Origin: Owenia fusiformis
Taxonomy: Eukaryota; Annelida; Polychaeta; Sabellida; Oweniidae
DNA length: 64,000 nucleotides
Reading direction: 5' to 3'
Assembly: GCA_903813345.2 (NCBI GenBank)
Contig: CAIIXF020000009.1
Span: forward strand, 21,787,759-21,851,758
This document shows, piece after piece, positions 24,801-27,800 of the stretch. The notes below the pieces were generated by a model. That model ran no database searches and was not told where the DNA came from. It was given only the letters and a program-made list of their open reading frames with translations. Positions within the stretch are counted from its first letter, which is position 1, and every line of letters begins with the position of its first letter. Made by a program: the position numbers and the translations under genes.

Positions 24801-27800
24801 ACTAGGGACAATTAAAGCATATTTGAAATAGATTACAAGATTGACATACTGTTTCACAAAGGCCTAGGTATGCAATAATAAATTATTTCAAATGACTATG
24901 CAATAATAAATTATTTCAAATGATTATGCAATAATATATTGTTTCAAACGATTATGCAATAATAAATTATTATGCAATAATGAATTATTTCAAACAACTA
25001 TGCAATAATAAATGATTTCAAACGATTATGCAATAATAAATTATTTCAAACACCGTGCTTCTTTTGTTACATGTACGAGTATATATGTGAGTGGGTTTTG
25101 GGTAGATATCACCCGGGAATATATATCATATCTGAGGAGCGGGCAGGATATATTGTATATGTCCCACTCTAGGCCGAATGCGGGCAGATATAATATATCC
25201 ATCCCGCTCCCAGGAATTTTTTCAAAAGTTTAAAAAAGTTTAAAAAGTTTTAAAATTTAAATTTCAGAAGTTTAAAATTTTTCAAAAAGTTTAAATGTTA
25301 CAATTCTATTGTATTGAACTGAAGGAATATTATGAAAATGTTAAATATAAATTGTGCTTTTACAGTATAGGCCTATCTTGTCATTTGAAAAAGGTGGTAA
25401 AGGTTATATCTACCCCAAACCCACTCAAGTATGAGATACACCAGTTATGTACGGTCAGTTTTGGATACAGTGTTTATCCCGCGGGAAATATACATATTTC
25501 CCTTGGGATAAACCCTGTATCAAAAACCTCCCAGTACATAACCCTTATATATCCAGTATATTTTATTCTTACCTGAAGTGGATTTTCATTCTCATCTTCT
25601 CCTAAAGATCGACAGTTACTGATGGTAAATATAAGGATGAATGCGGCAACTGCAGACATTGAGGCCACAATCACAGCTTCCAGTACATTTGGCCACTTTA
25701 GTGTAGACAGATACCTACAGGTATACAAATTGATGGTAAATAAAAGGATGAATGCGGCAACTGCAGACATTGAGGCTACAATCACAGCTTCCAGTACATT
25801 TGGCCACTTTAGTGTAGACAGATACCTACAGATATACAAAGTGATGGTAAATATAAGGATGAATGCGGCAACTGCAGACATTGAGGCAACAATCACAGCT
25901 TCTAGTACATTTGGCCACTTTAGTGTAGACAGATACCTACAGATATACAAAGTGATGGTAAATATAAGGATGAATGCGGCAACTGCAGACATTGAGGCAA
26001 CAATCACAGCTTCCAGTACATTTGGCCACTTTAGTGTAGACAGATACCTACAGGTATACAAAGTGATGGTAAATATAAGGATGAATGCGGCAACTGCAGA
26101 CATTGAGGCCACAATCACAGCTTCCAGTACATTTGGCCACTTTAGTGAAGACAGATACCTACAGGTATACAAATTGATGGTAAATATAAGGATGAATGCG
26201 GCAACTGCAGACATTGAGGCCACAATCACAGCTTCCAGTACATTTGGCCACTTTAGTGTAGACAGATACCTACAGGTATACAAATTGATGGTAAATATAA
26301 GGATGAATGCGGCAACTGCAGACATTGAGGCTACAATCACAGCTTCCAGTACATTTGGCCACTTTAGTGTAGACAGATACCTACAGATATACAAAGTGAT
26401 GGTAAATATAAGGATGAATGCGGCAACTGCAGACATTGAGGCAACAATCACAGCTTCTAGTACATTTGGCCACTTTAGAGTAGACAGATACCTACAGATA
26501 TACAAATTGATTGATGGGAATAATACTTTTGATTCAGTAACAGCAGATATCAAAGCCAAAACCATACAAGTCTATTTTAGATGTAGCAGCAGTAAATTTA
26601 AAATGAGACAATCTATGGTATTTTCTCCTCAAATGTTGCCATTGTTTAAGATGTATGGATTTACCAAGGTCAAGGTGGAGTTTATGTCACCTTTAGAAGA
26701 TGTTTATGCTTGTCTGCTAGGTTTTATTCTTAAAAAATATGAATAAGTCACTCTGTTCAGAGTAAAGCCTTAAGGCACAACATTGACCTATCTATAACGT
26801 TACAATGAAATGGAATGACAGGTAAAACATGTAGTAACTAATGTGTTGTAATGATACTCAAATGTGTCAACTAACAACATCAGTTGAGGAAATACAAGGA
26901 TAAGTGATGACTTTACAAATATTATATAGATTATTGAAATGTAGGAATACGAAGGCTTTATTGCTGCAAATCTGTGTTTTAGCAGGTAGGTGTACAATAA
27001 CATTTTTGATCTACAATTTCTGATTAAGATAAGGGAAGGATATGTTAATAGCACCTTGAAAAAGTCTGAATCATCTTTCTTATTTCTGTTTTCAATTTAC
27101 ATTCTGTCTCAATGATACTGGGGACTGTTTCTCGAAACTAATTAACGAATCGTTGATAGCGATTTGTGGATTCGTTTCTATGGATACTGGGGGCTGTTTC
27201 TCGAAACTTATCGTTATTAAAGAATCGTTGATAGCGATTCGTGGATTCGTTGCTATGGATACCACATCGTTAATGGAATAACGAGACCCCCATTCGTACT
27301 CGTAAAATCAATCATGGATAATGAATAAATTGTTATCATGATGTCATCGCAAATTGTTAACTTTCAAGAAATGGGAAAATCATTATTAACAATTGAATTA
27401 ATGATTCGTAATACGAAACTTTCGAGAAACAGCCTCCTGTATACATACAGTAGATATATTGCTTGAGAGATATCATTCAATGCAAAAATGATGTGCAAAA
27501 ATTTTAGTATGTTAAAACTGAATAAGTGTTTTACAAATCACGAAACGCAATGGAGTTCCAGGTAATAAGAATTTCCCAATTTCAGTATTCCTTATAGTGA
27601 TTTTGTAATTTCAGGCATTTTCCTTGCTTTACAGCTACGATGGAAAAACAAAAAGGTATTTCATATTTTTAAATTATTGAACAAGCCATGTTTGATGAAT
27701 CTGTAGTAAATATATTATTTTCATGAAATACGTAAGAAAAATATTTTCAACATCTTGTTAAGCAAGATCTTGTTGTGGGGATCATTGTTTTTGTGTGTCT

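What the first reader, a model, noticed from the sequence alone, without database searches (positions are those of the whole stretch)
25573..26491. Eight in-frame copies of the CLC-7 exon 12 splice acceptor
Seen: a 111-bp (37-codon) tandem array whose unit carries an intron-like end with AG plus the membrane-helix part of exon 12; acceptors at 25714 + 111k, one donor at 25572, no stop in any unit on minus. Known: the corresponding segment in CLC-7 is a transmembrane helix after the MFR(I/K) linker, present once. Inference: any of eight acceptors gives an in-frame mRNA, adding 0-7 extra hydrophobic segments of 37 aa. That could be a length-variable source of transporter isoforms, or a tolerated array where only the last acceptor is used. 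I know of no described case in a CLC gene.
Basis: partly seen in the sequence, partly recalled or inferred. Interest (0 to 1): 0.85.

Follow-up and report, generated by a model that had tools for sequence, protein, structure and literature searches.

The report
Minisatellite over a CLC-7 splice acceptor
A worm's gene for a lysosomal chloride/proton exchanger carries eight tandem copies of an intron end plus part of the next exon; this looks like one of many splice-site minisatellites in that genome (a kind described before in amphioxus) rather than a device for making longer transporters.

Summary
In detail: eight 111-bp units (25620-26511) on the minus strand of a CLC-7 gene, each with an acceptor AG|G at 25714+111k, one shared donor at 25572, no stop in the coding frame. 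The isoform reading is not supported. The same gene has a second array (16 x 55 bp, 22092-22971) over a splice donor, where only the first donor keeps the frame. A sample of 75 exon loci from the same genome gave at least six more boundary-spanning arrays and one weak one, in myosin and ABC-transporter genes. Of the eight clear arrays two have units divisible by three, about what chance gives, and one of those two has an in-frame stop. Synonymous bias among units also occurs in the 55-bp array, so it is no sign of translation. Such arrays are known in amphioxus as 'mirages', reported to leave splicing normal. The genome appears to be an annelid; Owenia fusiformis is plausible, not proven. Best explanation: a splice-acceptor mirage; the exon-side acceptor (25714) is used and the other seven units leave with the intron. 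New are the lineage and apparent frequency. No RNA evidence was available.

The parts
25573..25714 (-). Authentic CLC-7 exon 12 (last unit plus unique 3' part), 142 nt, phase-2 start (CA|G), ends CTTCAG|GTAAGA
   Evidence: collinear with solved CLC-7 over a single helix; best of the units in tblastn with human CLC-7 (E 1.4e-4 against 0.011-0.032 for the others), as it alone has the 3' part
25620..26511 (-). Acceptor-spanning minisatellite, 8 x 111 bp: 17-nt intron tail + 94 nt of exon 12
25715..26491 (-). Seven duplicate units; with the authentic site they give eight intact AG|G acceptors; inferred to be removed as part of intron 11
   Evidence: sequence; removal is inference from sister arrays and the amphioxus literature
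39152..39212 (-). CLC-7 exon 11 ([19 protein letters not shown] + CA|), donor GTGAGT
22943..23122 (-). CLC-7 exon ...[10 protein letters not shown]| whose donor is covered by the second array
22092..22971 (-). Donor-spanning minisatellite, 16 x 55 bp (29 nt exon end + GTATGG... intron start); only the first donor (22942) keeps the frame to the next exon GLYDIHIR at 21839

Best explanation
It is a minisatellite that straddles the 3' splice site of CLC-7 intron 11, of the kind called 'mirage' in amphioxus. A local tandem duplication (breakpoints share ATCA) copied the last 17 nt of the intron and the first 94 nt of exon 12, and unequal exchange or slippage raised this to eight units. The spliceosome mostly joins exon 11 to the exon-side copy (25714), 142 nt from the donor, so the mRNA is normal and the seven other units leave with the intron. 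The 37-codon, stop-free unit is a coincidence that makes occasional mis-splicing frame-neutral. Shown: anatomy, gene identity, sister arrays in the same gene and in other genes. Inferred: which acceptor is used, how it arose, instability.
For: Array and splice sites as described. Second array over a donor in the same gene; reading past its first donor meets a stop after nine codons (VWTHVALQS), so only donor 1 works. At least six further clear boundary arrays in 75 loci (249,993 bases, partly overlapping) taken without regard to repeats: donor type L010 (34 bp x4), L023 (41 x4), L030 (121 x2.8); acceptor type L016 (61 x4.5), L019/L080 (122 x at least 15), L035 (114 x5.2); weak: L037 (about 21 bp, 3 copies). 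Units are unrelated in sequence by eye, so the process looks general. Unit lengths divisible by 3: 2 of 8 clear arrays (111, 114), and 114 carries a stop. In donor arrays the first copy and in acceptor arrays the last copy continues into the exon: both CLC-7 arrays and 5 of the other 6; the end of L035 was not in the locus. The CLC-7 exons that align to human residues 126-612 are open; the N-terminal and most CBS exons were not mapped. Literature: same architecture in amphioxus globin Gb6/Gb9, Adh3, TnC, PGBD5, with normal splicing reported for Adh3 and globin.
Against: No transcript was seen. The 17-nt intron tails are nearly the same in all copies (two variable sites), so site strength does not single out 25714. 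Four of six changes in the exon-derived part are synonymous (26.5% expected; binomial P = 0.046), which could mean that the extra copies are translated; but 3 of 3 variable exon-derived sites in the 55-bp array are third-position and synonymous in the exon frame too, and 15 of its 16 copies lie beyond a stop (codon reading by hand). The outermost unit differs most from the rest (summed differences 20), but the exon-side unit does not (10), so the boundary pattern reported for amphioxus is only half met. Normal splicing in PGBD5 was assumed by its authors, not tested.
Confidence: 0.86

Rival explanations
1. Alternative acceptors are used and make functional CLC-7 isoforms with 1-7 extra helices of 37 aa.
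For: All units in frame and stop-free; all eight AG|G intact; mild synonymous bias.
Against: Unit length is at about the chance level among the clear arrays (2 of 8 divisible by three); same synonymous bias in the 55-bp array; each unit holds one strongly hydrophobic stretch (19-residue mean up to 2.56), so odd numbers would invert the downstream half including the CBS domains (inference).
Confidence: 0.05
2. Leaky splicing: upstream acceptors are used at low level as noise without function (compatible with the best explanation).
For: Intact acceptors in every unit; the authors of the amphioxus globin study allow for cryptic use.
Against: No RNA data; RT-PCR in amphioxus suggested regular splicing.
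Confidence: 0.3
3. Intron birth (Rogers model): each junction holds AG|GT, so a unit could be removed as a 111-nt intron GTATCT...CTGTAG.
For: AGGT at every acceptor; mechanism described and proposed for amphioxus mirages.
Against: TAG|GTATCT matches 6 of 9 consensus donor letters against 8 for the real donor CAG|GTAAGA, though the working donor GAG|GTATGG of the other array also has only 6; the product would be the same as skipping, so it cannot be told apart without RNA.
Confidence: 0.05
4. Assembly artefact: the array is collapsed or expanded wrongly, or not present.
For: Tandem arrays are hard to assemble; the amphioxus draft seems to have mis-assembled one.
Against: Units differ by point changes, some shared by scattered units, and many such arrays occur. 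Copy number itself is untested.
Confidence: 0.04

Closest known systems
Amphioxus 'mirage' minisatellites (globin Gb6/Gb9, Adh3, TnC, PGBD5)
   Same: Tandem units that span an exon-intron boundary and repeat the splice site, at either the donor or the acceptor; Gb6 has 6 and 3 units of 150-160 bp over an intron end plus exon start in two haplotypes; PGBD5 has 60- and 108-bp arrays
   Different: Here an apparent annelid, a CLC-7 gene with one array of each type, and a unit that is open and a multiple of three
[quoted passage not shown] potato RdRp, vertebrate ATP2A1)
   Same: Duplicated AGGT-bearing segment; in the potato case copied from an intron-exon structure
   Different: Many copies, and no evidence that a new intron is used
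Internal tandem repeats at exon-intron boundaries of human genes in segmental duplications
   Same: Minisatellites at boundaries that can change splicing
   Different: Primate-specific recent paralogues with transcript support; here a single-locus array without RNA data

Membership tests
Mirage minisatellite | Tandem array whose unit spans an exon-intron boundary | tested here: met
   17 nt intron + 94 nt exon per unit
Mirage minisatellite | Splice site repeated in the units | tested here: met
   AG|G in 8 of 8 units
Mirage minisatellite | One end copy runs into the real exon | tested here: met
   25714-25573 is collinear with CLC-7
Mirage minisatellite | Normal mRNA despite the array | not testable with these tools
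   no RNA data
Mirage minisatellite | Length polymorphism or somatic instability | not testable with these tools
   one place only in the assembly
Mirage minisatellite | Concerted evolution with end units set apart | tested here: inconclusive
   outermost unit most divergent, exon-side unit not
Mirage minisatellite | Found in cephalochordates (all cases read) | tested here: inconclusive
   searches point to an annelid, without a name; a matter of distribution, not of definition
Rogers-type gained intron | AGGT in the duplicated unit | tested here: met
Rogers-type gained intron | New intron actually spliced | not testable with these tools
   no RNA data
CLC-7 (H+/Cl- exchange transporter 7) | Best match to solved CLC-7 over CLC-6 and others | tested here: met
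   600.7 v 458.8 bits

The most novel reading that the evidence does not exclude
Splice-site minisatellites are a widespread, ongoing feature of this annelid-like genome (at least 6 of 75 sampled exon loci), and where the unit happens to be open and a multiple of three, as in CLC-7, part of the transcripts do read extra units, so that copy-number changes become length changes of a transporter.
Probability: 0.07. Interest if true: 0.75.

Novelty: new member of a known kind. Interest (0 to 1): 0.4.

Why it matters
The mirage cases in the papers I could read are from amphioxus. Two in one gene and at least six clear ones in 75 sampled loci of an apparent annelid suggest that this is not a chordate oddity, and that some genomes tolerate many intact copies of a splice site beside the real one. 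Such genomes are a natural test of how the spliceosome chooses between identical sites, and a source for gained introns.

Tried and rejected
Amphioxus as the source: a fluorescent-protein family, expected there (recalled), gave no match (the control genomes did not ring either, so this is weak), and the contig pattern does not fit the 19 chromosomes I recall. Mitochondrial COX1 for identification: no match. Assembly statistics in papers: 0 papers for one pair of terms, 38 listed for another; I judged 37 by listing only; the dog whelk paper proved to have 2,525 contigs and 2.32 Gb, so it does not fit (passages). Mollusc haemocyanin family: none, controls silent, so no proof of absence. Myosin against solved structures: best 508.7 bits (scallop, species recalled), 493.4 (squid, recalled), 492.5 (Myosin-6); insect-type chains lower; this does not decide the phylum. 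Synonymous bias as proof of translation: rejected because the 55-bp array shows it as well. Arrays that looked donor- or acceptor-like but showed no exon at their edge on reading: L021 (same stretch as in L027), L029, L047; L007's array begins just after the exon. Of the 14 arrays that passed the periodic splice-motif filter, I read 8 in sequence; L005, L015, L041, L048 and both of L077 were not read. Of the 37 that failed the filter I read only L007 (one of its arrays) and L021; of the rest I saw at most the unit. The count of six clear arrays is therefore a lower bound. No structure prediction was run: an array of repeated helices without relatives would say little.

Full report
Observation. 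The array is real in this assembly. Tandem Repeats Finder gives 8.0 copies of 111 bp at 25620-26511, 97% matches. On the minus strand the first exon bases are 26491 down to 25714 in steps of 111, each after CTGTAG. The frame is open in all units. The last unit runs on through [17 protein letters not shown] to the donor at 25572. Exon 11 ends at 39152, and the join CA|G gives ...[12 protein letters not shown].... The gene is CLC-7: 600.7 bits to solved CLC-7 (7bxu), 458.8 to CLC-6. The query held one unit, and solved CLC-7 has one helix there; in tblastn with the human fragment the last unit scores best (E 1.4e-4 against 0.011 to 0.032). A whole-genome search with a unit finds eight matches, all here.

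How it is built. Each unit is 94 nt of exon and 17 nt of intron tail. The duplicates join ...TTTACCATCA from the exon to ATCAATTTGTATA... from the intron; both share ATCA at the breakpoint (read). Units differ at seven columns: five in the exon part, two in the intron part. At two of the exon columns the variants recur in scattered units, as expected of exchange between units.

A second array in the same gene. 22092-22971 holds 16 units of 55 bp, each with 29 nt of exon end and ...AATGAG|GTATGG. The next exon, GLYDIHIR at 21839, fits only to the first donor: reading on past it meets a stop after nine codons (VWTHVALQS). Here tolerance needs no guesswork: the gene works only if the exon-side site is used. 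Of the 13 exons that the human fragment maps, 2 carry such an array at one edge.

Sister arrays elsewhere. I took 75 loci from the same genome around the best matches to three protein families, without regard to repeats: 30 of 92 myosin matches, 25 of 25 ABC matches and 20 of 138 ion-channel matches. They come to 249,993 bases, some overlapping. 36 of 75 have an array of period 25 or more; 51 arrays cover 14,791 bases. I read 8 of the 14 arrays that passed a splice-motif filter, and three others (L007, L021, L037). Six span an exon edge clearly. Donor type: L010 (34 bp x4...QYNYLIQ|GTAGGG), L023 (41 x4...IRPLTMHQ|GTATGT) and L030 (121 x2.8...SIDQALDAR|GTATGT; this exon judged only from its open frame between AG and GT). 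Acceptor type: L016 (61 x4.5, TTTCAG|GCCACATATGCC, exon ATYARDALCKAIYSRLF), L019 with L080 (122 bp, at least 15 copies by exact 16-mer, last copy running into YNVIAVCALPMKSEASDLQQCIQALQYCDIEKYK|GT) and L035 (114 x5.2, exon GRTVLVIAHRLSTIQNADLIAV). For L035 the end of the array lies outside the locus, so the authentic exon itself was not seen. The assignment of the L019, L023 and L035 exons to their proteins is from reading. L037 is a weak seventh. The count is a lower bound. In the 20 ion-channel loci, which have long exons, I identified none, but two arrays of L077 that passed the filter were not read.

What this says about the isoform idea. Unit lengths of the eight clear arrays are 34, 41, 55, 61, 111, 114, 121 and 122: two multiples of three, where chance gives 2.7. 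The other multiple, 114, has an in-frame stop. The remaining six would shift the frame if an outer site were used. The open 37-codon unit of CLC-7 is therefore the sort of case expected now and then. The mild excess of synonymous changes among the units (4 of 6, P = 0.046) is matched by 3 of 3 in the exon part of the 55-bp array, whose outer copies lie beyond a stop. The simplest reading is that arrays are young and share variants with the real, constrained exon. Each unit has one strongly hydrophobic stretch, so one extra unit would add one membrane pass and invert the rest of the protein; that step is inference.

Which acceptor. Site strength does not decide: the 17-nt intron tails are almost alike. 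The exon-side copy gives an exon of 142 nt; outer copies give 253 to 919 nt. In the arrays where the frame matters the exon-side site has to be the one used. The amphioxus globin study reports, from RT-PCR and Adh3 data, that mirages do not disturb regular splicing (section 16 read in full). I infer the same here. Minor leakage stays open.

Whose genome. Match positions show that C1 to C12 each reach at least 26 Mb (C4 and C12 by their measured lengths); measured lengths are C1 62.2, C12 36.7 and C4 31.9 Mb, and C13 and C14 are only 0.66 and 0.19 Mb. The other contigs were not measured, so '12 chromosomes' is likely, not proven. Three matches above cut-off to the erythrocruorin linker C-terminal family, a family I recall as annelid. 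Owenia fusiformis has 12 chromosome-scale scaffolds and 505.8 Mb (passages read); this one has 498.3 Mb. I regard an annelid as likely and Owenia as plausible, not shown.

What is known. 'Mirages': PMC3087553 (section 16 read, other passages seen) and PMC3902484 (passages seen); the original Adh3 paper, by the identifier I recalled, is not held and the TnC paper was not seen. Boundary repeats in human duplicated genes: PMC2812944 (passages). Intron gain by tandem duplication: PMC4974935 (passages). I found no mirage reported outside cephalochordates in the listings of searches (42 showed 12 of 13 papers, 53 showed 10 of 119), which cover open-licence papers only. I made no search for CLC genes with such arrays.

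Verdict. It is a new member of a known kind, in a lineage where I found no report, and apparently common there.

Noticed in passing
22092-22971: 16 x 55 bp array over a splice donor of the same CLC-7 gene; 16 intact GAG|GTATGG sites, only the first keeps the frame.
   Followed up: yes
L010, L016, L019/L080, L023, L030, L035, L037: Boundary-spanning arrays in myosin and ABC-transporter genes of the same genome, up to at least 15 copies of 122 bp.
   Followed up: partly
G000:C9:37986009-37994334 (-): Twelve separate matches to about the same stretch of the myosin head (positions about 25-84) beside one muscle-myosin gene, possibly a cluster of alternative exons.
   Followed up: no
50640-51020: 6.8 x 56 bp array, apparently in an intron of a neighbouring gene; most units end CTTTCAG but no coding part was seen.
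   Followed up: partly
30453-32039 and 35292-36869: Two long intronless open frames on the plus strand (528 and 525 aa) that look like UDP-glycosyltransferases, lying inside CLC-7 intron 11 (39151-25715); name from recall, not searched.
   Followed up: no
6953-7632 and 33039-33926: Arrays of 115-155 bp with AAAATGGCCGCC..., a related unit also seen in L014: a dispersed repeat family.
   Followed up: no
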